In this document: positions 1-40,245 of the stretch, piece after piece
Position numbering within the stretch: the first letter of the stretch is position 1
How the letters are laid out: every line of letters begins with the position of its first letter
From: Phytophthora sp. 'mugwort'
Lineage: Eukaryota > Oomycota > Peronosporomycetes > Peronosporales > Peronosporaceae
NCBI GenBank assembly: GCA_033558025.1
Contig: JAUCEF010000004.1
Location: 1,860,001-1,924,000 of the forward strand
Direction: 5' to 3'
DNA length: 64,000 bases
Program-made: the position numbers and the translations under genes
Notes under the pieces: model-generated
Told to the model about the DNA's origin: nothing
Seen by the model: only the letters and a program-made list of their open reading frames with translations
Databases searched by the model: none

Positions 1-718
1 AATGACTAGCTAAAACAAGAAACTTATCGGGAATGATGCTACTAGCTCATGAGGCCAACGAAATTTTGTTGATCCTCTTTCCGTGGAACTTAATTGACAA
101 TTACAGCCGACGTTTGTGATGTATCATGTTCCTTGCTTTATTCAAAACAAACAACTGTTTTTGTTTCTCGTTCTGATGATAGTATGTAGACCGCATGATC
201 AAGACACTATTGAGCATATTAAACTCCCGAACTATCGGCGGCAAGTACTACGTCCTTGACCCGTAGACTATTTGCGTCCTATACTGTACCTTAGACGTTT
301 TGGGCGAAAAATTGTCTCAAATCAGTTTTCATTTGGGTTATTAAAGTCACACCACGCGACTTTCACGAGCGCTGTGCTTGCGAGCTCGTGTGTAGAGGTC
401 TACTAAACTGCATAAGAGCTTTACTCTATAATGCCTCATCAGAACAACAAAAGCGTTTCGTCAGCAGAGTAAACCTGCCGAAATGCTGTTCCATCCATAA
501 ACGTTACTTTTAATTGCGGCACCAGGTAGCGGTATTTTCTAGATGGTTGTTTTGCCTGTTCACCTCGGGAAGAACGAGTTCTAGTTCCTCATCTTGATCT
601 ACTACTACTGCTACTAGGTCTGTCTGGCGCTGGTCGGTACGGCGGCGGGTGATAATAAAAAAAATCGTTTTTGCTAGCTACCGCTAAACACGAACCCTAA
701 CCGTCCCTTCGTGAACAA

Positions 719-1537
719 TGGCATCGATGGCACATTCTTGGCCGCAAGTTCACTATCAAGCGCCAACTATCCTTCATCGACAAGTTCTACCTGGACATTT
801 CGGGCATTCGTACGTCTGAAGTGGCTAACCAGCTCTTCATGGGACTGTCAGCGATTGGAGCACGACCATTGTTTTGGACACCACGTGATGTCAGTATGGA
901 GGCTCAGGTGGCCATGCCAACGTGGCGCTTCTACTTCGGCCAAGAAATGCCCCCCCCCCTCGTGTTTGAAAGTGCGTGGATTCGTGACAAACCAATTAGC
1001 GTATGGTGGACACTTTTGTTCGACGCGAGGAAAACGCTCTGTTGCGCCACTCGAGCGAGCTACTGGCTTTAGGCAGTCGCCGTATGCAATAGTGCTTCCC
1101 TCCGAAAGTGACCGTCTTCACCATAAGCAACGCGACACTGCGCAAGCTGTAGACAACCCCATCAACTCAACCCATGATGATCATATCATTGTGGCCACGC
1201 CAGATCGACACCCAGTCGCGCCAAGCGATTTTCCTACGTCTGCGACGCAAGAGCTGCCCCCCCATGGCATATCTCGCCAAGCGTCCGTTCGTTCGAGAAT
1301 GCAGACACCTTATGCGGCTGGTTGGCATCCTCTTCAGGACCCGTTTTACACGACCACGGTTCTCAATTGACAATTGAAGAACAATCGGACATGGAAATGG
1401 AATCTGCTCCAAGCGATGAAGACGTGGATATGCTGCATCATCCTGAATCAGGATTTAAGCGAAGCGAGTCGTCTCTCGCAGATGCAAACCCTTTTGCACC
1501 CCTCGATACGATGGAATGCAACTTTGAAACCTTTTAA
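719..1537 (+). pseudogene. LINE ORF1-like remnant, copy 1
   Basis: Protein-like sequence runs in one frame from about 719 (basic start, then a run with VANQLFMGL and TPRDVSMEAQ) to a C10 tract at 950-959. It continues in another frame (SCLKVRGFVTNQLAYGG) to a stop at 1370. A third frame with an acidic stretch (SDMEMESAPSDEDVDM) ends at 1537. The shift at the poly-C tract separates two parts that are joined in frame in copies 4, 5 and 6, where the tract is C9. The position before the RT and the basic then acidic composition fit a LINE ORF1 nucleic-acid-binding protein. No zinc knuckle is visible, so the assignment rests mainly on position. Confidence 0.5.
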
Positions 1538-1887
1538 CCGGAAGTTCAGGAGGGTATGCGTCTGGTGTCCTCATCACTCCTCAGTTGGTTCGCACTAGCA
1601 CGGCCCCTGAACCTCAAGAGCCGCTGCCGACTAAAAGACGCGCAACGGACCTCAACAAGCGTTCGAGCGCAAACCTCAAACCGGACGAAGAAATCCTGGT
1701 CTCGGCACAGTAGACTTGTCTAGAATCTCATGAGGACCGCCTCATTCAAAACGTACAACACATAGGCCCCGCTAAGAAGCTCTTGCATGAGTCCAAGAAC
1801 ATGGATCAGGTGGTCCAATCCATTCCCGCGATGCCAATTGCGTGGTCAACTGCGTTTTAGTGTGATCTGGCTTCAGAAGGCAACGAC

Positions 1888-4800
1888 ATGAAGGACATTG
1901 CTGATCGAATCCTGGGATTGTCTGGAAATCTTGGAAGCAAAAACTCAAAGGCTCTGAAGAAATATCAGAAAATTATGAAAAATGGAGCTGCATCTGAATT
2001 AGCACTCGCTCGTCAACAACTTGAAGAGTGTACAGTGGTCGTCGCCCGTGATGATGCTGATGAACAAGCTGAAATCGATTTATACTTTGCCAGACAACGG
2101 TACACTGAGTGTAAAAACTAATGGTAAAAAAATGACGAACTCCGTTCTGTTGTCGTCACTGTCTGCTCAAACCCAGCTGCATTCCGAAACTTTTTTTCAA
2201 GCTTTTTTTTCGGAATGGAGTTGGGTTTGAGCAGGCAGTGACGACAGCAGAACGGAGCTCGTCATTTTCTTTCGCGCAGCACGCTACAAACTTCGTCATA
2301 CTCTGTTTGATTCGATTAATAGGCTGATGGTACCGTGTCTAGCGATCCAACTGACATTTAATCAGGGTTTCCAGGATCACTGGGGCAAGAGTTTTGGTGA
2401 CACGCGGTATACCGAAGGAAATCCGAACTTGATGAAGCTGCGCAGCATCGCTTGCTAGACTCGATTGACCGCAAGCTCAATTTGGAGCCAAGAACAGTTT
2501 AGATAATGAGCAAACGGTTGATGAATTGGCTGCGTCAATGCGGACGATGCGGTCGTACTCAGCACCAGGTCCTGATGGTTTTATAGCGGCATTTTACCAA
2601 GTGGATCCGAAAGTATCTGGTGAAATTTTGCTCATAGTTTTTCGTTACCAAATGAATTGTTGCCGCATCAGCGCCATTCTTCTGTGGCACTTTTGTCCAA
2701 GAAAGGAAATCGTGCGGACCCGGGTAATTTCCGACCAATTACGTTGATCCCCGTGGAAATCAAAGTGCTGTCTCGGTTGTTAGCATATCGACTGAAACTT
2801 TCATTGCTACATTAGTGCATCCTGACCAGAAAGGTTTTATACCAGGACGGTCAATCCATCATCAAGTAATATTGGTGCGCGATCTTCAGCATTTAATTAG
2901 TAGTCGTGGTGGTAAAGCGGTTGCGGCTGTTCTTGATTTTGCGAAAGCATACGATCGTGTCAACCGTGGTTACTTGTTCAAGGTGATGGAGCGACAAGGT
3001 TTCGGATCAAATTTCCTTGCTTGGATTCGACTACTCTGCAATGGTTCAATGTGCTCTCTGATGATCAATGGATGGGCGCTTGATCCACTAGCGCCATCTC
3101 GGGGCGTTAAGCATGGGGACCCTTTGTCACCATACCTATTTGCACTATCACTCGAACCGCTAGGAAATTTACTACGAGCCAGAAGAGAGCTGGGCGTTGT
3201 GATTGATGCGTCTTTATCGATTCCCGTAGCTTTCTTTGCTGATGATACTCCGTTGTTTTCTCGAGATGTTTTCCACCTCGGAGAACAACTACAACTTGTT
3301 GATTGTTATTTGCTGGATTAGGGAGCAATGCTCAATCATTCGAAAAGTGTCGTCATGAGCCTTAACAATCATCGGGCAACTCCAACATTGGAGCCGCTCC
3401 ATTCGCTGCAAGCAGGAGATATTGTCAAGTATCTTGGTATTCCGTTTGGAAATTTTGAGACATCAACACAATATGCAACTCCGCTGGACAAGAAGCTCAT
3501 GACTAGCCTTCGTTTGTTGGAAAGGTAGAGCGCGTACACTGATGGGGCGTCGGCTAATTTTCCAAGCGGTCATTCTGTCCATGGTTTGGTACTTCACGAC
3601 AAGGATGAATATACCGGTCCGGTTCATTAGTGGTGGCAAAGTGTCGTGACTAGGTACATATTGTATAACCGCGTTGGCCCTGGAGGAGTTAGTATTTGTT
3701 CGGAAAGATCTGGCTACCCAGCCGCGAGAGGCTGACCGAATTGGGGTACAATAATTATGACCAGCATCCGTAGGCAGCGTTTTCTTCTTCTCCAACAACT
3801 CGCGCATGTGATGTATGGACACAACATGGATAACGCATTGGTAGAGCACCGATCTATTGCGGAACTATTACGACTTCGTTATGGAGTATTTGGACGTCCG
3901 TGGTCTAGTGATTTTTTGTTTCAAAACCCTCCCCGTCCGGCTGGATGGAGAGCAACTATGCTACCAACGTGGTGGCGTCAAATATTGAAGGATTGGAAAC
4001 GACTCAAATGGCCAAGTAGGCCCTCCATTTGCTGCAGTAGGGTAAAAACGCTTCAGTATGCTTTGTTCAGCCCTATTTGGTGGAATACATCCCGTGAATT
4101 TCAAGTATGGCATACCCGAGGTTCGCCCTGGAAACCATTCGGGACAGGATCAAACAAGTTTAGACGCCTGTGCAGTGAACTCGCTGCCATGCAAAAGTGG
4201 TGTCTTGCTGACTTCTTAGACGAAAATCATCATTGGCTGACAGCCTTTGTTTTCTTGTGGAATGTGTGCAACGAGCTACAATCATTGCTTGGTCCATACA
4301 TACAAACGTGATATTCTTCAACTGTATCGACAATTGAGTCAGATCTTTCACCGAGGGTTCCCACATCCTGAAGCTGGTGGAATGAGTGTTGCAACCCGTG
4401 ATGTATCAGTACCTGTCTGTGGTGTGCTAGTTGGAAAAAGTGCACGCTTTTTCCCGAATCTTCGGATACAGGAATGGAATACCCTTCTGGCACCTGCACA
4501 AACAATGGATACACATCCTATGTGTGAGCTTGGATGCCCCCAGCACGTACTTCACTCGACACTCACAAGCTTCATATCACTCCGGCGTTGCATAATTCCA
4601 ATCGTCCATGATGTGATGCTGCGGCTGTTCTTCGGTGACCCCATTATGGGATCCCAATTTTATTTCTCGAAGTCAACTGAACAATGCGTTCGTAATTCAT
4701 GTTTATCGTTTGAAACGGTGGAACACTGCTTATTTCCTGCCCGGCTTTGCCCGAGTATGTGGAAATCTCTTTGGGACACCGTGGAGCAAAGCTTTTGCGA

Positions 4801-5228
4801 AGCATTTATAATGGAAGTTACTGTTGTTCCCCACCTTGCGCGATGTTCACGCTAGTTGGAGGCACGAGCATGGGGTGTTAATTCTCCTTTGGAGAGTGCA
4901 CACTGCTATTGTCTTTGACGCTACGTGGCGCCTATGTAATGACATCTACTTTCATGAAACAGAAGCACAGCAACCAAGCGTACCAAGCTTGGTCAGCTCG
5001 TTTGGGCGACATTGTCAATTTATCTACCAATACTCAACAGAGTTGGGCATTGGGGAGATACAGTTGTCTCTATCCTCCAACGTCTGGGATTTGACGCTCC
5101 CATGACGTTGAACGTACCTCCCCCTGAGCATCGAATATGGATCCCGCGTCCAGAGTCCAGTAATTATCCTATCTACGTAGCTAGCAGACCGAGAAGTCCT
5201 ATAACCAGTAAATCAATTCTTTTCTATC
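1888..5228 (+). pseudogene. LINE reverse transcriptase (ORF2) pseudogene, copy 1
   Basis: Remnant of the polymerase ORF of a LINE, which would copy element RNA into DNA at the insertion site. Seen in order: a helical linker (1888-2121); RT N-terminal block with SAPGPDGF (2526-2680); after a frame change, KKGNRADPGNFRPITLIPVE (about 2699-2758); the RT core at 2815-3321 with QKGFIPGRS, motif A DFAKAYDRVN (catalytic Asp at residue 41), HGDPLSP, and motif C FADD (Asp 143/144). A stop at 3319-3321 cuts off the thumb (3328-3528, KYLGIPFG). Beyond several frame changes, 4247-4855 carries a Cys/His-like region (CLSFETVEHCLF, then W) resembling the zf-RVT region of LINE proteins. The last frame (about 4824-5228) is broken near 5052. 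With this many breaks it cannot give a full enzyme. Confidence 0.88.
2129..2268. repeat. 140-bp inverted repeat (hairpin) inside LINE copy 1
   Basis: Arms of 61 nt (2129-2189 and 2208-2268) are reverse complements apart from five positions, with an 18-nt T-rich loop. Three of the five exceptions would be G-U pairs if transcribed. It lies between the linker remnant, which ends in a stop at 2121, and the first RT block. It interrupts the polymerase ORF, because protein-like sequence resumes directly after it (FFRAARYKLRHTLF). No terminal direct repeats were evident around it. Confidence 0.9.
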
Positions 5229-6325: not shown

Positions 6326-6580
6326 TTACCAGCCGTAGCCAATGCCGCCGAAGCCACCCCAGCGTCCCCATGGTCCCCATCCGTAGCCCCCCCATCCCGG
6401 GAAACCCTTGTGCCACCACTCCTTCTTGCCGTTCTCGGCGTCCGCGCTCTCCTTGTCGACAGGAACAGCAAAGCTGGGCGTGTCAGCCGCTGCGAGAGCT
6501 CTCAGTGCAGACGGACCGGCAGCGGTAGCGACGCCGGCACCAGCGACGAGGGCGGTGACGACGAAAGTAGTGAGCTTCAT
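6326..6580 (-). CDS. Small secreted Gly/Trp-rich protein (84 aa), minus-strand gene of the pair, unit 2
   Basis: I do not recognise a named family. Residues 1-21 form a clear signal peptide (MKLTTFVVTALVAGAGVATAA). A short charged segment follows (about 42-54, with Asp, Lys and Glu). The C-terminal third (55-84) is a Gly/Trp/Tyr-rich tail with six Trp in spaced GW motifs, ending GIGYGW. There is no cysteine. The start chosen is the ATG at 6580: the frame is open upstream to an ATG at 6736, but those 52 extra residues are basic and would bury the signal peptide, so they are probably 5' UTR. It is transcribed away from the plus-strand gene across a shared 303-bp promoter region. Extracellular or wall-associated location is inferred from the signal peptide. 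Here Gly-69-type codons use the GGG variant (silent). Confidence 0.8.
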   Translation of the reverse strand: MKLTTFVVTALVAGAGVATAAGPSALRALAAADTPSFAVPVDKESADAENGKKEWWHKGFPGWGGYGWGPWGRWGGFGGIGYGW

Positions 6581-6883
6581 GTTCGTTGCGGAAACTGTGC
6601 GAAGTGAGGCAAGTTGGTTTGTGTGAACTGGTGACACAATGGTTCGTTCAGAGCTGGTTTTGATGGAACCTCTTCTTCGTCTTCTCCAAGACGGCGTCAA
6701 TCTTGAGGATTGATTGAGTGCCGCCAACTCGAACATTTATGTAGTGCAAGAAAAGTCCTCGATTTCGCGGGTATTTGTTCGCTTGGATGAAAGATTTAAC
6801 TTCCCTTGGAGGTGGAATCTTAGAACAGCCACAACTCCATTTGTTGCCAACATAACAAGTCGAGAACCCCCACCATCACAGCC
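6581..6883. promoter_or_regulatory. Divergent promoter region between the paired genes
   Basis: The 303 bp between the two start codons must hold both promoters. Read on the minus strand, CTCACTTCGCACAGTTT (6592-6608), about 12-28 nt upstream of the minus gene ATG, resembles the oomycete initiator consensus. For the plus gene, ctccatttgttgcca (about 6835-6849) lies some 35-50 nt before the ATG and is a weaker match. No TATA box is evident. Both starts have a purine at -3. The same region occurs at 8627-8929, 10673-10978, 12723-13025, 14767-15072, 16814-17119, 24287-24589, 26331-26636, 33801-34106, 35850-36155, 37900-38204, 39940-40245, 47402-47707, 49449-49754 and 56923-57228. Length is 303 or 306 bp, depending on whether the plus-gene leader reads gagaaccccc or gagaatcaacacc; unit 14 has 305. 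Confidence 0.55.
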
Positions 6884-7330
6884 ATGAAGTTCAGCGTCTT
6901 CCTCGTCGCCATGATGGCCATTCTCGGTACTGTCGCCGCTGCTGACCAACCTGTCGTCAAGACTCCGACCGAAGCTCTCGAAAAGGTTCAAGCGTCTGCG
7001 TTACCCGACGGTGTCACGCTGATTGGAACTGCAGAGAAGATCGACCCTCCTGCTGGAGCTGCTACGACCATCGCGAAGGAAGCCCACAAGGACGACGACA
7101 AGGAGCAGCTCGGTTTGGGCCTTGGCGGATGGGGACTCGGCGGTTGGGGACTCGGAGGCTGGGGTGGCTGGGGCGGTTGGGGTGGCTTTGGCCCCTACCG
7201 CTTCGGCTTCTTGCACGGCGGCTACCCTGGCTGGGCGTATCCGTTGGGTTACTGGAACCTGTTCGGCGCTGGTCTGTACGGCGGTGGGTGTGGTCTGGGC
7301 ATTCCTTTCGGTGGTCTATACTATTGCTAG
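6884..7330 (+). CDS. Secreted Gly/Trp-rich protein (148 aa), plus-strand gene of the pair, unit 2
   Basis: No named family recognised. A signal peptide spans residues 1-20 (hydrophobic core VFLVAMMAILGTV, likely cleavage before Asp21). Residues 21-75 are a hydrophilic, mildly acidic domain ending in HKDDDKEQ. Residues 76-103 are a Gly/Trp repeat (GLGGW and GGW modules with five Trp). Residues 104-148 are Gly/Tyr/Trp/Phe-rich with two cysteines (136 and the C-terminal 148), which could form a disulphide or cross-link chains. The start is the only ATG that opens the signal peptide. Composition resembles structural wall or matrix glycine-rich proteins, but that is analogy only. The last 19 codons are the site where the LINE sits in type B units. 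Confidence 0.85.
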   Translation: MKFSVFLVAMMAILGTVAAADQPVVKTPTEALEKVQASALPDGVTLIGTAEKIDPPAGAATTIAKEAHKDDDKEQLGLGLGGWGLGGWGLGGWGGWGGWGGFGPYRFGFLHGGYPGWAYPLGYWNLFGAGLYGGGCGLGIPFGGLYYC

Positions 7331-8371
7331 ATGGATTCAAGTAACCTCGGATTACCTCAAATGGCTAGCAGCTTACATTGTCGCCGAGGGTAGATCGACG
7401 TCGTAGGGTTAGCTTGCTATACATGCTTCCTTTCGTTATGAAGTTCTGAATTTGGCTTTCGGTGGTCAATGACTAGCTAAAACAAGAAACTTATCGGGAA
7501 TGATGCTACTAGCTCATGAGGCCAACGAAGTTTTGTTGATCCTCTTTCCGTGGAACTTAATTGACAATTACAGCCGACGTTTGTGATGTATCATGTTCCT
7601 TGCTTTATTCAAAACAAACAACTGTTTTTGTTTCTCGTTCTGATGATAGTGTGTAGACCGCATGATCAAGACACTATTGAGCATATTAAACTCCCGAATT
7701 ATCGGCGGCAAGTACTACGTCCTTGACCCGTAGACTATTTGCGTCCTATACTGTACCTTAGACGTTTTGGGCGAAAAATTGTCTTAAATCAGTTTTCATT
7801 TGGGTTATTAAAGTCACACCACGCGACTTTCACGAGCGCTGTGCTTGCGAGCTCGTGTGTAGAGGTCTACTAAACTGCATAAGAGCTTTACTCTATAATG
7901 CCTCATCAGAACAACAAAAGAGTTTCGTCAGCAGAGTAAACCTGCCGAAATGCTGTTCCATCCATAAACGTTACTTTTAATTGCGGCACCAGGTAGCGGT
8001 ATTTTCTAGATGGTTGTTTTGCCTGTTCACCTCGGGAAGAACGAGTTCTAGTTCCTCATCTTGCTCTACTACTACTACTAGGTCGACCTCACCCCCATTA
8101 CAGCGACTCCCGCACCTCAACTAACACGTGTACAAACATTGTGGTGATGCTTCAAAAAGGTCAAACATCCTAAAAATGGCCCGAAATCCCTATTGGACCA
8201 GAATTACAAAAATGTGCGCATAAGCAGACACAACTTAACCTGCATTCGAAATACTGGTGCATGTTCAGCCCTAACTAGTGATATCACACGATAACGGAAG
8301 TCGAGGAAGTTGGAATTGATTCAAGTTTGGAAAGCAATGGTCGATCGACCCGTGCGCTCCGTCACCAGCGA

Positions 8372-8626
8372 TTACCATCCGTAGCCAGTGCCGCCGAAGC
8401 CACCCCAGCGTCCCCATGGTCCCCATCCGTAGCCTCCCCATCCCGGGAAACCCTTGTGCCACCACTCCTTCTTGCCGTTCTCGGCGTCCGCGCTCTCCTT
8501 GTCGACAGGAACAGCAAAGCTGGGCGTGTCAGCCGCTGCGAGAGCTCTCAGTGCAGACGGACCGGCAGCGGTAGCGACGCCGGCACCAGCGACGAGGGCG
8601 GTGACGACGAAAGTAGTGAGCTTCAT
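8372..8626 (-). CDS. Small secreted Gly/Trp-rich protein (84 aa), unit 3
   Basis: Same layout as the unit 2 gene (signal peptide 1-21, charged middle, GW tail). It is the only copy with Thr at residue 80 (GTGYGW instead of GIGYGW), from a single base change near the stop codon. Start chosen at the signal-peptide Met, 52 codons inside the longer open frame. Confidence 0.8.
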   Translation of the reverse strand: MKLTTFVVTALVAGAGVATAAGPSALRALAAADTPSFAVPVDKESADAENGKKEWWHKGFPGWGGYGWGPWGRWGGFGGTGYGW

Positions 8627-8929
8627 GTTCGTTGCGGAAACTGTGCGAAGTGAGGCAAGTTGGTTTGTGTGAACTGGTGACACAATGGTTCGTTCAGAGC
8701 TGGTTTTGATGGAACCTCTTCTTCGTCTTCTCCAAGACGGCGTCAATCTTGAGGATTGATTGAGTGCCGCCAACTCGAACATTTATGTAGTGCAAGAAAA
8801 GTCCTCGATTTCGCGGGTATTTGTTCGCTTGGATGAAGGATTTAACTTCCCTTGGAGGTGGAATCTTAGAACAGCCACAACTCCATTTGTTGCCAACATA
8901 ACAAGTCGAGAACCCCCACCATCACAGCC

Positions 8930-9376
8930 ATGAAGTTCAGCGTCTTCCTCGTCGCCATGATGGCCATTCTCGGTACTGTCGCCGCTGCTGACCAACCTGT
9001 CGTCAAGACTCCGACCGAAGCTCTCGAAAAGGTTCAAGCGTCTGCGTTACCCGACGGTGTCACGCTGATTGGAACTGCAGAGAAGATCGACCCTCCTGCT
9101 GGAGCTGCTACGACCATCGCGAAGGAAGCCCACAAGGACGACGACAAGGAGCAGCTCGGTTTGGGCCTTGGCGGATGGGGACTCGGCGGTTGGGGACTCG
9201 GAGGCTGGGGTGGCTGGGGCGGTTGGGGTGGCTTTGGCCCCTACCGCTTCGGCTTCTTGCACGGCGGCTACCCTGGCTGGGCGTATCCGTTGGGTTACTG
9301 GAACCTGTTCGGCGCTGGTCTGTACGGCGGTGGGTGTGGTCTGGGCATTCCTTTCGGTGGTCTATACTATTGCTAG
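8930..9376 (+). CDS. Secreted Gly/Trp-rich protein (148 aa), unit 3
   Basis: Protein identical to the unit 2 copy, with two C-terminal-region cysteines and the full GGW repeat. It has the short leader (gagaaccccc) and the Ala39 GCG and Asp42 GAC codons, as in units 2, 5 and 9. Confidence 0.85.
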   Translation: MKFSVFLVAMMAILGTVAAADQPVVKTPTEALEKVQASALPDGVTLIGTAEKIDPPAGAATTIAKEAHKDDDKEQLGLGLGGWGLGGWGLGGWGGWGGWGGFGPYRFGFLHGGYPGWAYPLGYWNLFGAGLYGGGCGLGIPFGGLYYC

Positions 9377-10417: not shown

Positions 10418-10672
10418 TTACCATCCGTAGCCAATGCCGCCGAAGCCACCCCAGCGTCCCCATGGTCCCCATCCGTAGCCTCCCCATCCCGGGAAACCCT
10501 TGTGCCACCACTCCTTCTTGCCGTTCTCGGCGTCCGCGCTCTCCTTGTCGACAGGAACAGCAAAGCTGGGCGTGTCAGCCGCTGCGAGAGCTCTCAGTGC
10601 AGACGGACCGGCAGCGGTAGCGACGCCGGCACCAGCGACGAGGGCGGTGACGACGAAAGTAGTGAGCTTCAT
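10418..10672 (-). CDS. Small secreted Gly/Trp-rich protein (84 aa), unit 4
   Basis: Encodes the majority protein form (Ala28, Gly14, Ile80). The penultimate Gly codon is GGA rather than GGC as in unit 2, a silent change. The promoter gap to its partner is 306 bp. Confidence 0.8.
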   Translation of the reverse strand: MKLTTFVVTALVAGAGVATAAGPSALRALAAADTPSFAVPVDKESADAENGKKEWWHKGFPGWGGYGWGPWGRWGGFGGIGYGW

Positions 10673-10978
10673 GTTCGTTGCGGAAACTGTGCGAAGTGAG
10701 GCAAGTTGGTTTGTGTGAACTGGTGACACAATGGTTCGTTCAGAGCTGGTTTTGATGGAACCTCTTCTTCGTCTTCTCCAAGACGGCGTCAATCTTGAGG
10801 ATTGATTGAGTGCCGCCAACTCGAACATTTATGTAGTGCAAGAAAAGTCCTCGATTTCGCGGGTATTTGTTCGCTTGGATGAAAGATTTAACTTCCCTTG
10901 GAGGTGGAATCTTAGAACAGCCACAACTCCATTTGTTGCCAACATAACAAGTCGAGAATCAACACCACCATCACAGCC

Positions 10979-11425
10979 ATGAAGTTCAGCGTCTTCCTCG
11001 TCGCCATGATGGCCATTCTCGGTACTGTCGCCGCTGCTGACCAACCTGTCGTCAAGACTCCGACCGAAGCTCTCGAAAAGGTTCAAGCGTCTGCATTACC
11101 CGACGGTGTCACGCTGATTGGAACTGCAGAGAAGATCGACCCTCCTGCTGGAGCTGCTACGACCATCGCGAAGGAAGCCCACAAGGACGACGACAAGGAG
11201 CAGCTCGGTTTGGGCCTTGGCGGATGGGGACTCGGCGGTTGGGGACTCGGAGGCTGGGGTGGCTGGGGCGGTTGGGGTGGCTTTGGCCCCTACCGCTTCG
11301 GCTTCTTGCACGGCGGCTACCCTGGCTGGGCGTATCCGTTGGGTTACTGGAACCTGTTCGGCGCTGGTCTGTACGGCGGTGGGTGTGGTCTGGGCATTCC
11401 TTTCGGTGGTCTATACTATTGCTAG
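10979..11425 (+). CDS. Secreted Gly/Trp-rich protein (148 aa), unit 4
   Basis: Protein identical to unit 2. It carries the longer leader (gagaatcaacacc) and a silent GCA codon at Ala39, a combination shared with units 6, 7 and 10. Confidence 0.85.
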   Translation: MKFSVFLVAMMAILGTVAAADQPVVKTPTEALEKVQASALPDGVTLIGTAEKIDPPAGAATTIAKEAHKDDDKEQLGLGLGGWGLGGWGLGGWGGWGGWGGFGPYRFGFLHGGYPGWAYPLGYWNLFGAGLYGGGCGLGIPFGGLYYC

Positions 11426-12467: not shown

Positions 12468-12722
12468 TTACCATCCGTAGCCAATGCCGCCGAAGCCACC
12501 CCAGCGTCCCCATGGTCCCCATCCGTAGCCTCCCCATCCCGGGAAACCCTTGTGCCACCACTCCTTCTTGCCGTTCTCGGCGTCCGCGCTCTCCTTGTCG
12601 ACAGGAACAGCAAAGCTGGGCGTGTCAGCCGCTGCGAGAGCTCTCAGTGCAGACGGACCGGCAGCGGTAGCGACGCCGGCACCAGCGACGAGGGCGGTGA
12701 CGACGAAAGTAGTGAGCTTCAT
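12468..12722 (-). CDS. Small secreted Gly/Trp-rich protein (84 aa), unit 5
   Basis: Majority protein form, signal peptide 1-21 and GW tail 55-84. No amino-acid change from unit 4. Confidence 0.8.
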   Translation of the reverse strand: MKLTTFVVTALVAGAGVATAAGPSALRALAAADTPSFAVPVDKESADAENGKKEWWHKGFPGWGGYGWGPWGRWGGFGGIGYGW

Positions 12723-13025
12723 GTTCGTTGCGGAAACTGTGCGAAGTGAGGCAAGTTGGTTTGTGTGAACTGGTGACACAATGGTTCGTTCAGAGCTGGT
12801 TTTGATGGAACCTCTTCTTCGTCTTCTCCAAGACGGCGTCAATCTTGAGGATTGATTGAGTGCCGCCAACTCGAACATTTATGTAGTGCAAGAAAAGTCC
12901 TCGATTTCGCGGGTATTTGTTCGCTTGGATGAAAGATTTAACTTCCCTTGGAGGTGGAATCTTAGAACAGCCACAACTCCATTTGTTGCCAACATAACAA
13001 GTCGAGAACCCCCACCATCACAGCC

Positions 13026-13472
13026 ATGAAGTTCAGCGTCTTCCTCGTCGCCATGATGGCCATTCTCGGTACTGTCGCCGCTGCTGACCAACCTGTCGTC
13101 AAGACTCCGACCGAAGCTCTCGAAAAGGTTCAAGCGTCTGCGTTACCCGACGGTGTCACGCTGATTGGAACTGCAGAGAAGATCGACCCTCCTGCTGGAG
13201 CTGCTACGACCATCGCGAAGGAAGCCCACAAGGACGACGACAAGGAGCAGCTCGGTTTGGGCCTTGGCGGATGGGGACTCGGCGGTTGGGGACTCGGAGG
13301 CTGGGGTGGCTGGGGCGGTTGGGGTGGCTTTGGCCCCTACCGCTTCGGCTTCTTGCACGGCGGCTACCCTGGCTGGGCGTATCCGTTGGGTTACTGGAAC
13401 CTGTTCGGCGCTGGTCTGTACGGCGGTGGGTGTGGTCTGGGCATTCCTTTCGGTGGTCTATACTATTGCTAG
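13026..13472 (+). CDS. Secreted Gly/Trp-rich protein (148 aa), unit 5
   Basis: Protein identical to unit 2, with the short leader (gagaaccccc) and GCG at Ala39. The promoter gap is 303 bp. Confidence 0.85.
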   Translation: MKFSVFLVAMMAILGTVAAADQPVVKTPTEALEKVQASALPDGVTLIGTAEKIDPPAGAATTIAKEAHKDDDKEQLGLGLGGWGLGGWGLGGWGGWGGWGGFGPYRFGFLHGGYPGWAYPLGYWNLFGAGLYGGGCGLGIPFGGLYYC

Positions 13473-14511: not shown

Positions 14512-14766
14512 TTACCATCCGTAGCCAATGCCGCCGAAGCCACCCCAGCGTCCCCATGGTCCCCATCCGTAGCCTCCCCATCCCGGGAAACCCTTGTGCC
14601 ACCACTCCTTCTTGCCGTTCTCGGCGTCCGCGCTCTCCTTGTCGACAGGAACAGCAAAGCTGGGCGTGTCAGCCGCTGCGAGAGCTCTCAGTGCAGACGG
14701 ACCGGCAGCGGTAGCGACGCCGGCACCAGCGACGAGGGCGGTGACGACGAAAGTAGTGAGCTTCAT
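14512..14766 (-). CDS. Small secreted Gly/Trp-rich protein (84 aa), unit 6
   Basis: Majority protein form with the GGA penultimate Gly codon. No cysteine; the GW tail is intact. Confidence 0.8.
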   Translation of the reverse strand: MKLTTFVVTALVAGAGVATAAGPSALRALAAADTPSFAVPVDKESADAENGKKEWWHKGFPGWGGYGWGPWGRWGGFGGIGYGW

Positions 14767-15072
14767 GTTCGTTGCGGAAACTGTGCGAAGTGAGGCAAGT
14801 TGGTTTGTGTGAACTGGTGACACAATGGTTCGTTCAGAGCTGGTTTTGATGGAACCTCTTCTTCGTCTTCTCCAAGACGGCGTCAATCTTGAGGATTGAT
14901 TGAGTGCCGCCAACTCGAACATTTATGTAGTGCAAGAAAAGTCCTCGATTTCGCGGGTATTTGTTCGCTTGGATGAAAGATTTAACTTCCCTTGGAGGTG
15001 GAATCTTAGAACAGCCACAACTCCATTTGTTGCCAACATAACAAGTCGAGAATCAACACCACCATCACAGCC

Positions 15073-15519
15073 ATGAAGTTCAGCGTCTTCCTCGTCGCCA
15101 TGATGGCCATTCTCGGTACTGTCGCCGCTGCTGACCAACCTGTCGTCAAGACTCCGACCGAAGCTCTCGAAAAGGTTCAAGCGTCTGCATTACCCGACGG
15201 TGTCACGCTGATTGGAACTGCAGAGAAGATCGACCCTCCTGCTGGAGCTGCTACGACCATCGCGAAGGAAGCCCACAAGGACGACGACAAGGAGCAGCTC
15301 GGTTTGGGCCTTGGCGGATGGGGACTCGGCGGTTGGGGACTCGGAGGCTGGGGTGGCTGGGGCGGTTGGGGTGGCTTTGGCCCCTACCGCTTCGGCTTCT
15401 TGCACGGCGGCTACCCTGGCTGGGCGTATCCGTTGGGTTACTGGAACCTGTTCGGCGCTGGTCTGTACGGCGGTGGGTGTGGTCTGGGCATTCCTTTCGG
15501 TGGTCTATACTATTGCTAG
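15073..15519 (+). CDS. Secreted Gly/Trp-rich protein (148 aa), unit 6
   Basis: Protein identical to unit 2. Long leader and GCA at Ala39. The flank just after the stop has the gccgagagtag variant. Confidence 0.85.
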   Translation: MKFSVFLVAMMAILGTVAAADQPVVKTPTEALEKVQASALPDGVTLIGTAEKIDPPAGAATTIAKEAHKDDDKEQLGLGLGGWGLGGWGLGGWGGWGGWGGFGPYRFGFLHGGYPGWAYPLGYWNLFGAGLYGGGCGLGIPFGGLYYC

Positions 15520-16558: not shown

Positions 16559-16813
16559 TTACCATCCGTAGCCAATGCCGCCGAAGCCACCCCAGCGTCC
16601 CCATGGTCCCCATCCGTAGCCTCCCCATCCCGGGAAACCCTTGTGCCACCACTCCTTCTTGCCGTTCTCGGCGTCCGCGCTCTCCTTGTCGACAGGAACA
16701 GCAAAGCTGGGCGTGTCAGCCGCTGCGAGAGCTCTCAGTGCAGACGGACCGGCAGCGGTAGCGACGCCGGCACCAGCGACGAGGGCGGTGACGACGAAAG
16801 TAGTGAGCTTCAT
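16559..16813 (-). CDS. Small secreted Gly/Trp-rich protein (84 aa), unit 7
   Basis: Majority protein form. It lies 306 bp from its partner start, and no change from unit 6 was seen in the protein. Confidence 0.8.
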   Translation of the reverse strand: MKLTTFVVTALVAGAGVATAAGPSALRALAAADTPSFAVPVDKESADAENGKKEWWHKGFPGWGGYGWGPWGRWGGFGGIGYGW

Positions 16814-17119
16814 GTTCGTTGCGGAAACTGTGCGAAGTGAGGCAAGTTGGTTTGTGTGAACTGGTGACACAATGGTTCGTTCAGAGCTGGTTTTGATGGA
16901 ACCTCTTCTTCGTCTTCTCCAAGACGGCGTCAATCTTGAGGATTGATTGAGTGCCGCCAACTCGAACATTTATGTAGTGCAAGAAAAGTCCTCGATTTCG
17001 CGGGTATTTGTTCGCTTGGATGAAAGATTTAACTTCCCTTGGAGGTGGAATCTTAGAACAGCCACAACTCCATTTGTTGCCAACATAACAAGTCGAGAAT
17101 CAACACCACCATCACAGCC

Positions 17120-17566
17120 ATGAAGTTCAGCGTCTTCCTCGTCGCCATGATGGCCATTCTCGGTACTGTCGCCGCTGCTGACCAACCTGTCGTCAAGACT
17201 CCGACCGAAGCTCTCGAAAAGGTTCAAGCGTCTGCATTACCCGACGGTGTCACGCTGATTGGAACTGCAGAGAAGATCGACCCTCCTGCTGGAGCTGCTA
17301 CGACCATCGCGAAGGAAGCCCACAAGGACGACGACAAGGAGCAGCTCGGTTTGGGCCTTGGCGGATGGGGACTCGGCGGTTGGGGACTCGGAGGCTGGGG
17401 TGGCTGGGGCGGTTGGGGTGGCTTTGGCCCCTACCGCTTCGGCTTCTTGCACGGCGGCTACCCTGGCTGGGCGTATCCGTTGGGTTACTGGAACCTGTTC
17501 GGCGCTGGTCTGTACGGCGGTGGGTGTGGTCTGGGCATTCCTTTCGGTGGTCTATACTATTGCTAG
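17120..17566 (+). CDS. Secreted Gly/Trp-rich protein (148 aa), unit 7
   Basis: Protein identical to unit 2. Long leader, GCA at Ala39. It is followed by the spacer of LINE unit 8. Confidence 0.85.
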   Translation: MKFSVFLVAMMAILGTVAAADQPVVKTPTEALEKVQASALPDGVTLIGTAEKIDPPAGAATTIAKEAHKDDDKEQLGLGLGGWGLGGWGLGGWGGWGGWGGFGPYRFGFLHGGYPGWAYPLGYWNLFGAGLYGGGCGLGIPFGGLYYC

Positions 17567-24031: not shown

Positions 24032-24286
24032 TTACCAGCCGTAGCCAATGCCGCCGAAGCCACCCCAGCGTCCCCATGGTCCCCATCCGTAGCCTCCCCA
24101 TCCCGGGAAACCCTTGTGCCACCACTCCTTCTTGCCGTTCTCGGCGTCCGCGCTCTCCTTGTCGACAGGAACAGCAAAGCTGGGCGTGTCAGCCGCTGCG
24201 AGAGCTCTCAGTGCAGACGGACCGGCAGCGGTAGCGACGCCGGCACCAGCGACGAGGGCGGTGACGACGAAAGTAGTGAGCTTCAT
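24032..24286 (-). CDS. Small secreted Gly/Trp-rich protein (84 aa), unit 9
   Basis: Majority protein form. The penultimate Gly codon is GGC as in unit 2, which also follows a LINE unit. Confidence 0.8.
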   Translation of the reverse strand: MKLTTFVVTALVAGAGVATAAGPSALRALAAADTPSFAVPVDKESADAENGKKEWWHKGFPGWGGYGWGPWGRWGGFGGIGYGW

Positions 24287-24589
24287 GTTCGTTGCGGAAA
24301 CTGTGCGAAGTGAGGCAAGTTGGTTTGTGTGAACTGGTGACACAATGGTTCGTTCAGAGCTGGTTTTGATGGAACCTCTTCTTCGTCTTCTCCAAGACGG
24401 CGTCAATCTTGAGGATTGATTGAGTGCCGCCAACTCGAACATTTATGTAGTGCAAGAAAAGTCCTCGATTTCGCGGGTATTTGTTCGCTTGGATGAAAGA
24501 TTTAACTTCCCTTGGAGGTGGAATCTTAGAACAGCCACAACTCCATTTGTTGCCAACATAACAAGTCGAGAACCCCCACCATCACAGCC

Positions 24590-25036
24590 ATGAAGTTCAG
24601 CGTCTTCCTCGTCGCCATGATGGCCATTCTCGGTACTGTCGCCGCTGCTGACCAACCTGTCGTCAAGACTCCGACCGAAGCTCTCGAAAAGGTTCAAGCG
24701 TCTGCGTTACCCGACGGTGTCACGCTGATTGGAACTGCAGAGAAGATCGACCCTCCTGCTGGAGCTGCTACGACCATCGCGAAGGAAGCCCACAAGGACG
24801 ACGACAAGGAGCAGCTCGGTTTGGGCCTTGGCGGATGGGGACTCGGCGGTTGGGGACTCGGAGGCTGGGGTGGCTGGGGCGGTTGGGGTGGCTTTGGCCC
24901 CTACCGCTTCGGCTTCTTGCACGGCGGCTACCCTGGCTGGGCGTATCCGTTGGGTTACTGGAACCTGTTCGGCGCTGGTCTGTACGGCGGTGGGTGTGGT
25001 CTGGGCATTCCTTTCGGTGGTCTATACTATTGCTAG
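24590..25036 (+). CDS. Secreted Gly/Trp-rich protein (148 aa), unit 9
   Basis: Protein identical to unit 2. Short leader and GCG at Ala39. Confidence 0.85.
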   Translation: MKFSVFLVAMMAILGTVAAADQPVVKTPTEALEKVQASALPDGVTLIGTAEKIDPPAGAATTIAKEAHKDDDKEQLGLGLGGWGLGGWGLGGWGGWGGWGGFGPYRFGFLHGGYPGWAYPLGYWNLFGAGLYGGGCGLGIPFGGLYYC

Positions 25037-26075: not shown

Positions 26076-26330
26076 TTACCATCCGTAGCCAATGCCGCCG
26101 AAGCCACCCCAGCGTCCCCATGGTCCCCATCCGTAGCCTCCCCATCCCGGGAAACCCTTGTGCCACCACTCCTTCTTGCCGTTCTCGGCGTCCGCGCTCT
26201 CCTTGTCGACAGGAACAGCAAAGCTGGGCGTGTCAGCCGCTGCGAGAGCTCTCAGTGCAGACGGACCGGCAGCGGTAGCGACGCCGGCACCAGCGACGAG
26301 GGCGGTGACGACGAAAGTAGTGAGCTTCAT
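26076..26330 (-). CDS. Small secreted Gly/Trp-rich protein (84 aa), unit 10
   Basis: Majority protein form with the GGA penultimate Gly codon, matching units 4-7. Confidence 0.8.
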   Translation of the reverse strand: MKLTTFVVTALVAGAGVATAAGPSALRALAAADTPSFAVPVDKESADAENGKKEWWHKGFPGWGGYGWGPWGRWGGFGGIGYGW

Positions 26331-26636
26331 GTTCGTTGCGGAAACTGTGCGAAGTGAGGCAAGTTGGTTTGTGTGAACTGGTGACACAATGGTTCGTTCA
26401 GAGCTGGTTTTGATGGAACCTCTTCTTCGTCTTCTCCAAGACGGCGTCAATCTTGAGGATTGATTGAGTGCCGCCAACTCGAACATTTATGTAGTGCAAG
26501 AAAAGTCCTCGATTTCGCGGGTATTTGTTCGCTTGGATGAAAGATTTAACTTCCCTTGGAGGTGGAATCTTAGAACAGCCACAACTCCATTTGTTGCCAA
26601 CATAACAAGTCGAGAATCAACACCACCATCACAGCC

Positions 26637-27083
26637 ATGAAGTTCAGCGTCTTCCTCGTCGCCATGATGGCCATTCTCGGTACTGTCGCCGCTGCTGACC
26701 AACCTGTCGTCAAGACTCCGACCGAAGCTCTCGAAAAGGTTCAAGCGTCTGCATTACCCGACGGTGTCACGCTGATTGGAACTGCAGAGAAGATCGACCC
26801 TCCTGCTGGAGCTGCTACGACCATCGCGAAGGAAGCCCACAAGGACGACGACAAGGAGCAGCTCGGTTTGGGCCTTGGCGGATGGGGACTCGGCGGTTGG
26901 GGACTCGGAGGCTGGGGTGGCTGGGGCGGTTGGGGTGGCTTTGGCCCCTACCGCTTCGGCTTCTTGCACGGCGGCTACCCTGGCTGGGCGTATCCGTTGG
27001 GTTACTGGAACCTGTTCGGCGCTGGTCTGTACGGCGGTGGGTGTGGTCTGGGCATTCCTTTCGGTGGTCTATACTATTGCTAG
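26637..27083 (+). CDS. Secreted Gly/Trp-rich protein (148 aa), unit 10
   Basis: Protein identical to unit 2. Long leader and GCA at Ala39. Confidence 0.85.
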   Translation: MKFSVFLVAMMAILGTVAAADQPVVKTPTEALEKVQASALPDGVTLIGTAEKIDPPAGAATTIAKEAHKDDDKEQLGLGLGGWGLGGWGLGGWGGWGGWGGFGPYRFGFLHGGYPGWAYPLGYWNLFGAGLYGGGCGLGIPFGGLYYC

Positions 27084-33545: not shown

Positions 33546-33800
33546 TTACCAGCCGTAGCCAATGCCGCCGAAGCCACCCCAGCGTCCCCATGGTCCCCAT
33601 CCGTAGCCTCCCCATCCCGGGAAACCCTTGTGCCACCACTCCTTCTTGCCGTTCTCGGCGTCCGCGCTCTCCTTGTCGACAGGAACAGCAAAGCTGGGCG
33701 TGTCAGCCGCTGCGAGAGATCTCAGTGCAGACGGACCGGCAGCGGTAGCGACGCCGGCACCAGCGACGAGGGCGGTGACGACGAAAGTAGTGAGCTTCAT
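33546..33800 (-). CDS. Small secreted Gly/Trp-rich protein (84 aa), Ser28 form, unit 12
   Basis: Ala28 is replaced by Ser (LRSLAAAD), just after the signal peptide; shared with units 13 and 15 only. Otherwise the majority protein. Confidence 0.8.
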   Translation of the reverse strand: MKLTTFVVTALVAGAGVATAAGPSALRSLAAADTPSFAVPVDKESADAENGKKEWWHKGFPGWGGYGWGPWGRWGGFGGIGYGW

Positions 33801-34106
33801 GTTCGTTGCGGAAACTGTGCGAAGTGAGGCAAGTTGGTTTGTGTGAACTGGTGACACAATGGTTCGTTCAGAGCTGGTTTTGATGGAACCTCTTCTTCGT
33901 CTTCTCCAAGACGGCGTCAATCTTGAGGATTGATTGAGTGCCGCCAACTCGAACATTTATGTAGTGCAAGAAAAGTCCTCGATTTCGCGGGTATTTGTTC
34001 GCTTGGATGAAAGATTTAACTTCCCTTGGAGGTGGAATCTTAGAACAGCCACAACTCCATTTGTTGCCAACATAACAAGTCGAGAATCAACACCACCATC
34101 ACAGCC

Positions 34107-34553
34107 ATGAAATTCAGCGTCTTCCTCGTCGCCATGATGGCCATTCTCGGTACTGTCGCCGCTGCTGACCAACCTGTCGTCAAGACTCCGACCGAAGCTC
34201 TCGAAAAGGTTCAAGCGTCTGCGTTACCCGATGGTGTCACGCTGATTGGAACTGCAGAGAAGATCGACCCTCCTGCTGGAGCTGCTACGACCATCGCGAA
34301 GGAAGCCCACAAGGACGACGACAAGGAGCAGCTCGGTTTGGGCCTTGGCGGATGGGGACTCGGCGGTTGGGGACTCGGAGGCTGGGGTGGCTGGGGCGGT
34401 TGGGGTGGCTTTGGCCCCTACCGCTTCGGCTTCTTGCACGGCGGCTACCCTGGCTGGGCGTATCCGTTGGGTTACTGGAACCTGTTCGGCGCTGGTCTGT
34501 ACGGCGGTGGGTGTGGTCTGGGCATTCCTTTCGGTGGTCTATACTATTGCTAG
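34107..34553 (+). CDS. Secreted Gly/Trp-rich protein (148 aa), unit 12
   Basis: Protein identical to unit 2 despite silent changes: AAA for Lys2 and GAT for Asp42. Long leader. Confidence 0.85.
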   Translation: MKFSVFLVAMMAILGTVAAADQPVVKTPTEALEKVQASALPDGVTLIGTAEKIDPPAGAATTIAKEAHKDDDKEQLGLGLGGWGLGGWGLGGWGGWGGWGGFGPYRFGFLHGGYPGWAYPLGYWNLFGAGLYGGGCGLGIPFGGLYYC

Positions 34554-35594: not shown

Positions 35595-35849
35595 TTACCA
35601 GCCGTAGCCAATGCCGCCGAAGCCACCCCAGCGTCCCCATGGTCCCCATCCGTAGCCTCCCCATCCCGGGAAACCCTTGTGCCACCACTCCTTCTTGCCG
35701 TTCTCGGCGTCCGCGCTCTCCTTGTCGACAGGAACAGCAAAGCTGGGCGTGTCAGCCGCTGCGAGAGATCTCAGTGCAGACGGACCGGCAGCGGTAGCGA
35801 CGCCGGCACCAGCGACGAGGGCGGTGACGACGAAAGTAGTGAGCTTCAT
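35595..35849 (-). CDS. Small secreted Gly/Trp-rich protein (84 aa), Ser28 form, unit 13
   Basis: Same Ser28 form as unit 12, including the one-base loss downstream of the stop. Confidence 0.8.
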   Translation of the reverse strand: MKLTTFVVTALVAGAGVATAAGPSALRSLAAADTPSFAVPVDKESADAENGKKEWWHKGFPGWGGYGWGPWGRWGGFGGIGYGW

Positions 35850-36155
35850 GTTCGTTGCGGAAACTGTGCGAAGTGAGGCAAGTTGGTTTGTGTGAACTGG
35901 TGACACAATGGTTCGTTCAGAGCTGGTTTTGATGGAACCTCTTCTTCGTCTTCTCCAAGACGGCGTCAATCTTGAGGATTGATTGAGTGCCGCCAACTCG
36001 AACATTTATGTAGTGCAAGAAAAGTCCTCGATTTCGCGGGTATTTGTTCGCTTGGATGAAAGATTTAACTTCCCTTGGAGGTGGAATCTTAGAACAGCCA
36101 CAACTCCATTTGTTGCCAACATAACAAGTCGAGAATCAACACCACCATCACAGCC

Positions 36156-36602
36156 ATGAAATTCAGCGTCTTCCTCGTCGCCATGATGGCCATTCTCGGT
36201 ACTGTCGCCGCTGCTGACCAACCTGTCGTCAAGACTCCGACCGAAGCTCTCGAAAAGGTTCAAGCGTCTGCGTTACCCGATGGTGTCACGCTGATTGGAA
36301 CTGCAGAGAAGATCGACCCTCCTGCTGGAGCTGCTACGACCATCGCGAAGGAAGCCCACAAGGACGACGACAAGGAGCAGCTCGGTTTGGGCCTTGGCGG
36401 ATGGGGACTCGGCGGTTGGGGACTCGGAGGCTGGGGTGGCTGGGGCGGTTGGGGTGGCTTTGGCCCCTACCGCTTCGGCTTCTTGCACGGCGGCTACCCT
36501 GGCTGGGCGTATCCGTTGGGTTACTGGAACCTGTTCGGCGCTGGTCTGTACGGCGGTGGGTGTGGTCTGGGCATTCCTTTCGGTGGTCTATACTATTGCT
36601 AG
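36156..36602 (+). CDS. Secreted Gly/Trp-rich protein (148 aa), unit 13
   Basis: Protein identical to unit 2; silent AAA at Lys2 and GAT at Asp42 as in unit 12. Confidence 0.85.
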   Translation: MKFSVFLVAMMAILGTVAAADQPVVKTPTEALEKVQASALPDGVTLIGTAEKIDPPAGAATTIAKEAHKDDDKEQLGLGLGGWGLGGWGLGGWGGWGGWGGFGPYRFGFLHGGYPGWAYPLGYWNLFGAGLYGGGCGLGIPFGGLYYC

Positions 36603-37644: not shown

Positions 37645-37899
37645 TTACCAGCCGTAGCCAATGCCGCCGAAGCCACCCCAGCGTCCCCATGGTCCCCATC
37701 CGTAGCCCCCCCATCCCGGGAAACCCTTGTGCCACCACTCCTTCTTGCCGTTCTCGGCGTCCGCGCTCTCCTTGTCGACAGGAACAGCAAAGCTGGGCGT
37801 GTCAGCCGCTGCGAGAGCTCTCAGTGCAGACGGACCGGCAGCGGTAGCGACGCCGGCACTAGCGACGAGGGCGGTGACGACGAAAGTAGTGAGCTTCAT
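37645..37899 (-). CDS. Small secreted Gly/Trp-rich protein (84 aa), Ser14 form, unit 14
   Basis: Gly14 in the hydrophobic core of the signal peptide is Ser (VASAG); only this copy has it. Residue 28 is Ala, unlike its neighbours. A signal peptide should still form. Confidence 0.8.
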   Translation of the reverse strand: MKLTTFVVTALVASAGVATAAGPSALRALAAADTPSFAVPVDKESADAENGKKEWWHKGFPGWGGYGWGPWGRWGGFGGIGYGW

Positions 37900-38204
37900 G
37901 TTCGTTGCGGAAACTGTGCGAAGTGAGGCAAGTTGGTTTGTGTGAACTGGTGACACAATGGTTCGTTCCGAGCTGGTTTTGATGGAACCTCTTCTTCGTC
38001 TTCTCCAAGACGGCGTCAATCTTGAGGATTGATTGAGTGCCGCCAACTCGAACATTTATGTAGTGCAAGAAAAGTCCTCGATTTCGCGGGTATTTGTTCG
38101 CTTGGATGAAAGATTTAACTTCCTTTGGAGGTGGAATCTTAGAACAGCCACAACTCCATTTGTTGCCAACATAACAAGTCGAGAATCAACACCACCATCA
38201 AGCC

Positions 38205-38642
38205 ATGAAGTTCAGCGTCTTCCTCGTCGCCATGATGGCCATTCTCGGTACTGTCGCCGCTGCTGACCAACCTGTCGTCAAGACTCCGACCGAAGCTCTC
38301 GAAAAGGTTCAAGCGTCTGCGTTACCCGATGGTGTCACGCTGATTGGAACTGCAGAGAAGATCGACCCTCCTGCTGGAGCTGCTACGACCATCGCGAAGG
38401 AAGCCCACCAGGACGACGACAAGGAGCAGCTCGGTTTGGGCCTTGGCGGATGGGGACTCGGCGGTTGGGGACTCGGAGGCTGGGGTGGCTGGGGTGGCTT
38501 TGGCCCCTACCGCTTCGGCTTCTTGCACGGCGGCTACCCTGGCTGGGCGTATCCGTTGGGTTACTGGAACCTGTTCGGCGCTGGTCTGTACGGCGGTGGG
38601 TGTGGTCTGGGCATTCCTTTCGGTGGTCTATACTATTGCTAG
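38205..38642 (+). CDS. Secreted Gly/Trp-rich protein (145 aa), Gln69 form, unit 14
   Basis: One GGW module of the repeat (about residues 95-100) is missing by a 9-bp in-frame loss, and Lys69 is Gln (HQDDDKE), as in unit 17. The signal peptide and both cysteines are kept. Confidence 0.85.
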   Translation: MKFSVFLVAMMAILGTVAAADQPVVKTPTEALEKVQASALPDGVTLIGTAEKIDPPAGAATTIAKEAHQDDDKEQLGLGLGGWGLGGWGLGGWGGWGGFGPYRFGFLHGGYPGWAYPLGYWNLFGAGLYGGGCGLGIPFGGLYYC

Positions 38643-39939: not shown

Positions 39940-40245
39940 GTTCGTTGCGGAAACTGTGCGAAGTGAGGCAAGTTGGTTTGTGTGAACTGGTGACACAATG
40001 GTTCGTTCAGAGCTGGTTTTGATGGAACCTCTTCTTCGTCTTCTCCAAGACGGCGTCAATCTTGAGGATTGATTGAGTGCCGCCAACTCGAACATTTATG
40101 TAGTGCAAGAAAAGTCCTCAATTTCGCGGGTATTTGTTCGCTTGGATGAAAGATTTAACTCCCCTTGGAGGTGGAATCTTAGAACAGCCACAACTCCATT
40201 TGTTGCCAACATAACAAGTCGAGAATCAACACCACCATCACAGCC

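What the first reader, a model, noticed from the sequence alone, without database searches (positions are those of the whole stretch)
6326..7330. Undescribed divergent pair of secreted Gly/Trp-rich proteins, repeated 15 times
Each type A unit encodes an 84-aa and a 148-aa protein, both with signal peptides and GW-rich C-terminal parts, sharing a promoter region of about 303 bp. Similar composition and fixed pairing suggest co-expression and possibly joint assembly into an extracellular or wall structure. The 148-aa protein has two cysteines and the 84-aa one has none. I recognise no named family for either. This is the best candidate for a new system in the window.
Basis: partly seen in the sequence, partly recalled or inferred. 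Interest (0 to 1): 0.8.

Follow-up and report, generated by a model that had tools for sequence, protein, structure and literature searches.

The report
Tandem array of paired secreted-protein genes
A Phytophthora-like water mould carries dozens of near-identical copies of two back-to-back genes for small, probably secreted, glycine- and tryptophan-rich proteins; the larger belongs to a widespread but unnamed water-mould family, perhaps structural, and the smaller looks like a shortened offshoot so far seen only here.

Summary
The window holds 15 head-to-head pairs (84-aa and 148-aa frames, both with signal-peptide-like starts), part of a longer array: 36 pairs at C4:1832228-1937410 plus one inverted copy near C4:1.99 Mb. 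The genome looks like Phytophthora or close kin. The 148-aa protein is not an orphan: 141 relatives at E<=0.001, the named ones in Phytophthora, downy mildews and Pythium, 15 invariant columns in 54 aligned sequences, dN/dS 0.10-0.26 against three paralogs. It matches no Pfam family or solved fold. For the 84-aa protein no database relative was found, and in this genome it was found only in the pairs. A profile comparison with shuffles suggests a divergent offshoot lacking the C-terminal core. A decayed trace beside one of three paralogs (modest statistics) suggests the pair predates the array. Most likely these are extracellular or wall structural proteins amplified by unequal crossing-over, comparable to the tandem M96 genes of Phytophthora but not M96. 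Expression, secretion and joint assembly are inferred, not shown. A degraded LINE-like element was amplified with the pairs.

The parts
6326..6580 (-). 84-aa secreted-type GW-rich protein (copy 1)
6581..6883 (.). Shared 303-bp spacer between the two start codons; INR-type match TCACTTC 27 nt before the 84-aa ATG
   Evidence: motif definition from PMC3599244 passages
6884..7330 (+). 148-aa protein of an unnamed oomycete family (copy 1)
6326..8371 (+). One complete 2,046-bp tandem unit (pair plus about 1-kb 3' spacer)
   Evidence: unit periods
8372..9376 (.). Pair 2 (84-aa 8372-8626 -, 148-aa 8930-9376 +)
10418..11425 (.). Pair 3 (84-aa 10418-10672 -, 148-aa 10979-11425 +)
12468..13472 (.). Pair 4 (84-aa 12468-12722 -, 148-aa 13026-13472 +)
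14512..15519 (.). Pair 5 (84-aa 14512-14766 -, 148-aa 15073-15519 +)
16559..17566 (.). Pair 6 (84-aa 16559-16813 -, 148-aa 17120-17566 +)
24032..25036 (.). Pair 7 (84-aa 24032-24286 -, 148-aa 24590-25036 +)
26076..27083 (.). Pair 8 (84-aa 26076-26330 -, 148-aa 26637-27083 +)
33546..34553 (.). Pair 9 (84-aa 33546-33800 -, 148-aa 34107-34553 +)
35595..36602 (.). Pair 10 (84-aa 35595-35849 -, 148-aa 36156-36602 +)
37645..38642 (.). Pair 11 (84-aa 37645-37899 -, 145-aa form 38205-38642 +)
39685..40683 (.). Pair 12 (84-aa 39685-39939 -, 145-aa form 40246-40683 +)
47147..48154 (.). Pair 13 (84-aa 47147-47401 -, 148-aa 47708-48154 +)
49194..50201 (.). Pair 14 (84-aa 49194-49448 -, 148-aa 49755-50201 +)
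56668..57675 (.). Pair 15 (84-aa 56668-56922 -, 148-aa 57229-57675 +)
621..5228 (+). 4.6-kb insert with a degraded reverse-transcriptase-like frame, co-amplified; further copies in the window at 18322-22933, 27839-32450, 41441-46047, 50959-55567 and 58430-63037

Best explanation
The feature is a recently amplified tandem array of a head-to-head gene pair in a Phytophthora-like oomycete. Each unit codes for (a) a 148-aa member of a widespread oomycete family of small secreted-type proteins: signal-peptide-like start, short conserved N-terminal element (LPDGV...E.I), charged linker, Gly/Trp-rich tract, and a C-terminal core (GPYRFG...GWAYPLGYWN...C...YYC); and (b) an 84-aa protein that looks like a diverged offshoot without the C-terminal core. 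Proposed mechanism: the roughly 305-bp spacer drives both genes together. Both products are secreted and deposited as flexible structural or adhesive protein in the wall or extracellular matrix. The Tyr/Cys-containing C-terminus of the larger protein anchors or cross-links it, and the smaller acts as core-less filler or partner. Unequal crossing-over raised copy number and so dose, and keeps the copies alike. Shown by sequence: the array, the open frames, constraint on the 148-aa protein, its family membership, near-identity of copies. Inferred: secretion, co-expression, wall location, cross-linking, dosage advantage.
For: 36 pairs plus 1 inverted, both frames open in 37 of 37 copies; no frameshifting indel in the two frames against 12 in about 1,320 bp of non-coding unit, 6.4 expected, P about 0.002 (counts, P). 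148-aa: dN/dS 0.095, 0.261 and 0.257 to three paralogs; within the array 8 silent and 4 replacement changes, P 0.006 (classified on the 33 of 37 copies of full length). 54-sequence alignment with P41, G43, G98, G103, P104, R106, G108, G116, W117, A118, Y119, P120, W124, C136, C148 invariant; 115 of 120 listed relatives end in Cys. 84-aa versus family profile: hhalign score 87.1 against a maximum of 67.2 in 120 shuffles with the signal peptide kept; mature part alone 58.9 against a maximum of 39.7 in 60; tail alone 52.6 against a maximum of 41.6 in 60. Two array blocks (14 and 22 units), 0.46% and 0.64% divergent within and 1.07% between, fit local amplification. Precedent: M96, tandem secreted putative wall proteins of Phytophthora, with concerted evolution or recent expansion as the explanations offered (PMC5999078 passages).
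Against: No transcript or peptide was available. No database relative of the 84-aa frame was found; its replacement share (4 of 8, P 0.15) and absence of frameshifts (2.3 expected, P 0.10) are not significant alone. GW-rich composition can converge, and shuffles destroy GW periodicity; direct BLASTP of the two proteins gives only E 0.026, over the signal peptide. The AF2 model is weak (mean pLDDT 65.8) and Foldseek found no PDB match. No exact INR or FPR match lies on the 148-aa side of the spacer. Array length could partly reflect assembly. No direct evidence for wall location or cross-linking.
Confidence: 0.5

Rival explanations
1. Only the 148-aa gene is functional; the 84-aa frame is a non-functional or de novo open frame carried along by recent amplification.
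For: No homolog in two searches; found only in the pairs in its own genome; no intact partner at the three paralogs examined; within-array constraint not significant alone; young array.
Against: Signal-peptide-like start, GC3 0.69 close to the 148-aa gene's 0.65 and above spacer GC 0.47, INR match 27 nt before the ATG, with a matching stretch kept at the C4:1969451 paralog (by eye); no indel in 37 copies; profile similarity beyond shuffles.
Confidence: 0.3
2. The pair encodes secreted effectors acting on the plant host, with copies amplified for virulence.
For: Small secreted-type proteins in a Phytophthora-like genome; some relatives are labelled 'RxLR effector protein' by UniRef.
Against: No RxLR motif in either protein (the mature parts, cut after residue 21, hold 1 and 2 arginines); relatives in Pythium oligandrum and Globisporangium, which are not known as RxLR users (recalled); core conserved rather than diversifying; low-complexity GW composition.
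Confidence: 0.12
3. The array is largely an amplification without selection (repeat expansion near LINE-like insertions), with no dosage benefit.
For: The degraded LINE-like insert was amplified with the pairs; an inversion-like rearrangement lies at the right edge.
Against: In the left block of 14 units an insert follows only the last unit, and that block still expanded; coding frames show fewer frameshifts than spacers.
Confidence: 0.3

Closest known systems
Unnamed oomycete family of the 148-aa protein (e.g. PHYPSEUDO_003647, PITG_16400, PHYSODRAFT_335335)
   Same: Same domain order and invariant core; these three are 79%, 64% and 63% identical to the window protein
   Different: Array copies have His where 93 of 108 listed relatives with the motif have a Cys; whether the others have an 84-aa partner could not be tested
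M96 family of Phytophthora (mating-induced putative wall proteins; PMC5999078 passages)
   Same: Signal peptides, Gly-rich, many copies in tandem clusters, mostly species-specific clades
   Different: M96 has a His-rich N-terminal third and is rich in Gly, Ser and Tyr, median mature size 271 aa; the window protein is Gly/Trp-rich, about 127 aa mature with 1 Ser and 2 His, has Pythium relatives and comes as a divergent pair. Expression unknown here.
IPIB Gly-rich proteins of P. infestans (PF10290 according to PMC3091767 passages)
   Same: Secreted Gly-rich repeat proteins of Phytophthora
   Different: No Pfam match for the two window proteins at E<=1; PF10290 is not among the 11 families matched by any of the 54 family members at E<=0.1
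PiLLP loricrin-like protein (PITG_15862; PMC5298957 passages)
   Same: Gly-rich oomycete protein, reported as required for oospore formation
   Different: 308 aa, no signal peptide, GGX/GXGX repeats

Membership tests
Unnamed oomycete family of the 148-aa protein | Signal-peptide-like start, LPxGV element, GW tract, GPYRFG and GWAYP core, two invariant Cys, C-terminal Cys: 148-aa protein | tested here: met
Unnamed oomycete family of the 148-aa protein | The same C-terminal core and Cys, and the LPxGV element: 84-aa protein | tested here: not met
   Sequence lacks the core, both Cys and LPxGV; only overall profile similarity
M96 | Tandem clusters of secreted Gly-rich proteins | tested here: met
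   secretion judged from hydropathy only
M96 | His-rich N-terminal third; Gly/Ser/Tyr-rich remainder | tested here: not met
   2 His and 1 Ser in the mature 148-aa protein; criteria
M96 | Mating-induced expression | not testable with these tools
   no expression data at hand
IPIB / PF10290 | Match to the Pfam domain | tested here: not met
RXLR effectors | RxLR motif after the signal peptide | tested here: not met
   sequences read; arginine counts
Loricrin-like LLP | About 308 aa, no signal peptide, GGX/GXGX repeats | tested here: not met
   passages

The most novel reading that the evidence does not exclude
A two-component extracellular material: a cross-linkable 148-aa protein and a core-less 84-aa paralog made in fixed ratio from one bidirectional promoter, and raised to about 37 doses by tandem amplification. 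The partner would be an inverted, truncated duplicate recruited as a second subunit.
Probability: 0.2. Interest if true: 0.6.

Novelty: new variant of a known kind. Interest (0 to 1): 0.4.

Why it matters
It points to a conserved but unnamed and unmodelled secreted-type protein family of oomycetes, with an invariant C-terminal core, and gives a clear case of recent large amplification of a member. If the products are wall or matrix proteins, the family is a candidate structural component shared by Phytophthora, downy mildews and Pythium. The head-to-head pair with a reduced partner would be an unusual form of such an array.

Tried and rejected
Independent homologs of the 84-aa protein: two database searches (7 candidates, E<=0.001, 82 candidates in a wider length range, E<=10) gave none. 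A six-frame search of its own genome at E<=10 gave 39 matches: the 37 pair copies and two weak ones (E 0.018) on the strand of the 148-aa gene. Both searches need shared 5-residue words, so remote relatives can be missed.

Solved structures: phmmer and profile searches gave nothing better than E 0.28. Foldseek on the AF2 model gave no match, so VIA-align had nothing to compare. NCBIfam gave no match for either protein.

Known-name search: four locus tags of relatives (two of P. infestans, two of P. sojae) occur in no paper of the held library. Listings of searches for Gly-rich or Trp-rich oomycete secreted or wall proteins showed no title or abstract start that describes this family; one search looked for bidirectional promoters in oomycetes without a relevant title. 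Supplementary tables could not be searched, so 'undescribed' is limited to these searches. For PMC5298957, PMC5999078, PMC3599244 and PMC3091767 I saw found passages and abstract starts only; the other papers were seen only as search listings.

Relic test at other paralogs: the upstream DNA of the 775-kb and 1829-kb paralogs scored at or below the shuffle mean, so the decayed partner is supported at one of three paralogs only. There the unanchored test gave 18 of 1,000 shuffles at or above the observed score, the anchored one 1 of 300. The gap penalties were mild, the anchored test was made after the unanchored one, and no correction for several tests was made.

148-aa side core promoter: no exact INR or FPR match in the spacer on that side; two DPEP-pattern matches.

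Full report
WHAT IS THERE. The window is G000:C4:1860001-1924000 of an 86.3-Mb genome in 154 contigs. The best named relatives of the 148-aa protein are from Phytophthora pseudosyringae, P. citrophthora and P. lilii, so the organism is taken to be a Phytophthora or close kin; its species was not determined. Fifteen head-to-head pairs lie in the window. BLAST of one unit along C4:1815001-2004000 shows the array starting at C4:1832228: 36 complete pairs. Of the 35 unit-to-unit distances, 29 are 2,032-2,052 bp and 6 are 7,462-7,474 bp, where an insert intervenes. One further pair lies inverted at C4:1989679-1990692.

INSERTS. Seven units of the array are followed by an insert, 4,607-4,612 bp in the six that lie in the window and 6,038 bp at the right edge. 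It carries fragmentary frames; of the four that I gave to Pfam, one matches RVT_1 at E about 1e-6, just below Pfam's cut-off (29.1 against 29.6 bits). The six inserts in the window are 99.5-99.8% identical to each other and 98.6-98.8% to the seventh; more diverged pieces lie on other contigs. After the insert the unit resumes at position 948, not 1760, as if one pair had been lost when this junction first formed. The insert's first bases resemble the 3' end of the 148-aa gene (by eye). So the element probably sat in an older unit and was amplified with the array.

CODING EVIDENCE. Over 37 copies the 84-aa frame (255 bp) has 8 variable columns (4 silent, 4 replacement) and no indel. The 148-aa frame (447 bp) has 11 variable columns and two in-frame indels (9 and 15 nt); in the 33 full-length copies there are 8 silent and 4 replacement changes. 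The spacer (303 bp) has 11 SNP columns and 5 indels, the first 754 bp of 3' spacer 35 and 9, the last 287 bp 3 and 1. With 12 frameshift-size indels in about 1,320 non-coding bp (two 3-nt events at the cut ends of units left out by hand), 6.4 would be expected in the two frames and none is seen (P 0.002; 148-aa alone 0.017; 84-aa alone 0.10). These tests treat events as independent, which copies under gene conversion are not. Against paralogs at C4:775652, 1829042 and 1969451 the 148-aa gene has dN/dS 0.095, 0.261 and 0.257 (the last over 139 codons). Further paralogous pieces at C4:1814024, 778030 and 1966535 were not used.

FAMILY. One search found 141 proteins at E<=0.001 among 1,516 candidates (120 listed). 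I aligned 53 of the 120 listed with the window protein. Fifteen columns are invariant, among them GP.R.G, GWAYP and two cysteines. Of 108 listed relatives with the GPYRFG-type motif, 93 have a further Cys three residues on, where the array copies have His. No Pfam family fits. The AF2 model is confident only for parts of the N-terminal element and the C-terminal hairpin, and Foldseek found no PDB match. A sister branch on C13 (123-aa and 177-aa frames ending in the same YPLSYWN...C...FYYC pattern) also lies head to head, there as near copies of each other, and has no Pfam match either (the 123-aa frame).

ORIGIN OF THE PARTNER. The 84-aa protein aligns to the family profile over 81 columns, with score 87.1 against 46 and 53 on average and 67.2 at most in two sets of 60 shuffles that kept the signal peptide. 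The shared order is signal peptide, polar linker, KKE plus aromatic, GW tract. It lacks the LPDGV element and the C-terminal core, so by the family's invariants it is not a full member; 'truncated diverged paralog' is inference, and direct BLASTP is weak. The paralog at C4:1969451 lies beside a type II methionyl aminopeptidase gene (TIGR00501, E 2.5e-73, above cut-off). It keeps a stretch of the 84-aa side with an INR-type sequence (by eye), and beyond it a decayed collinear trace of the 84-aa gene. The two other paralogs tested show none. In the C4:1969451 paralog the usual signal-peptide start is out of register with the rest of its frame. This suggests, without proving it, that the pair is older than the array.

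PROMOTER. On the 84-aa side TCACTTC matches the INR definition YCAYTYY 27 nt before the ATG. The 148-aa side has no exact INR (definitions from PMC3599244 passages). A match to this pattern within about 100 nt arises by chance about one time in ten (own estimate), so this is weak evidence.

READING. Amplified, near-identical, secreted-type, GW-rich, with a conserved Tyr/Cys-containing end: this works most like the M96 tandem wall-protein genes (PMC5999078 passages) without being M96. The effector reading is weaker, since there is no RxLR motif, the core is conserved, and relatives occur in Pythium. Whether the 84-aa frame is made at all is the main open point.

Noticed in passing
C4:1944399 and C4:1991597 (outside the window): The right edge of the array stops at unit position 1141 and the inverted copy 47 kb away begins at 1142, as if one inversion cut a unit in two.
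   Followed up: partly
621-5228 and five further copies: A degraded LINE-like element amplified with the array, its left end resembling a diverged 3' end of the 148-aa gene.
   Followed up: partly
C4:1829042-1829578 (L010:4042-4581): Paralog just left of the array with an expanded KDDDND-type repeat in the charged linker.
   Followed up: no
C4:778030-778350: Partial 148-aa copy with one stop, about 2 kb from the intact paralog at 775652.
   Followed up: no
L054:906-1277 (-) and 2198-2731 (+) (C13): Sister-family secreted-type genes, near copies of each other, also head to head; more relatives at C13:2869328, C13:2930317 and C6:1790522.
   Followed up: partly
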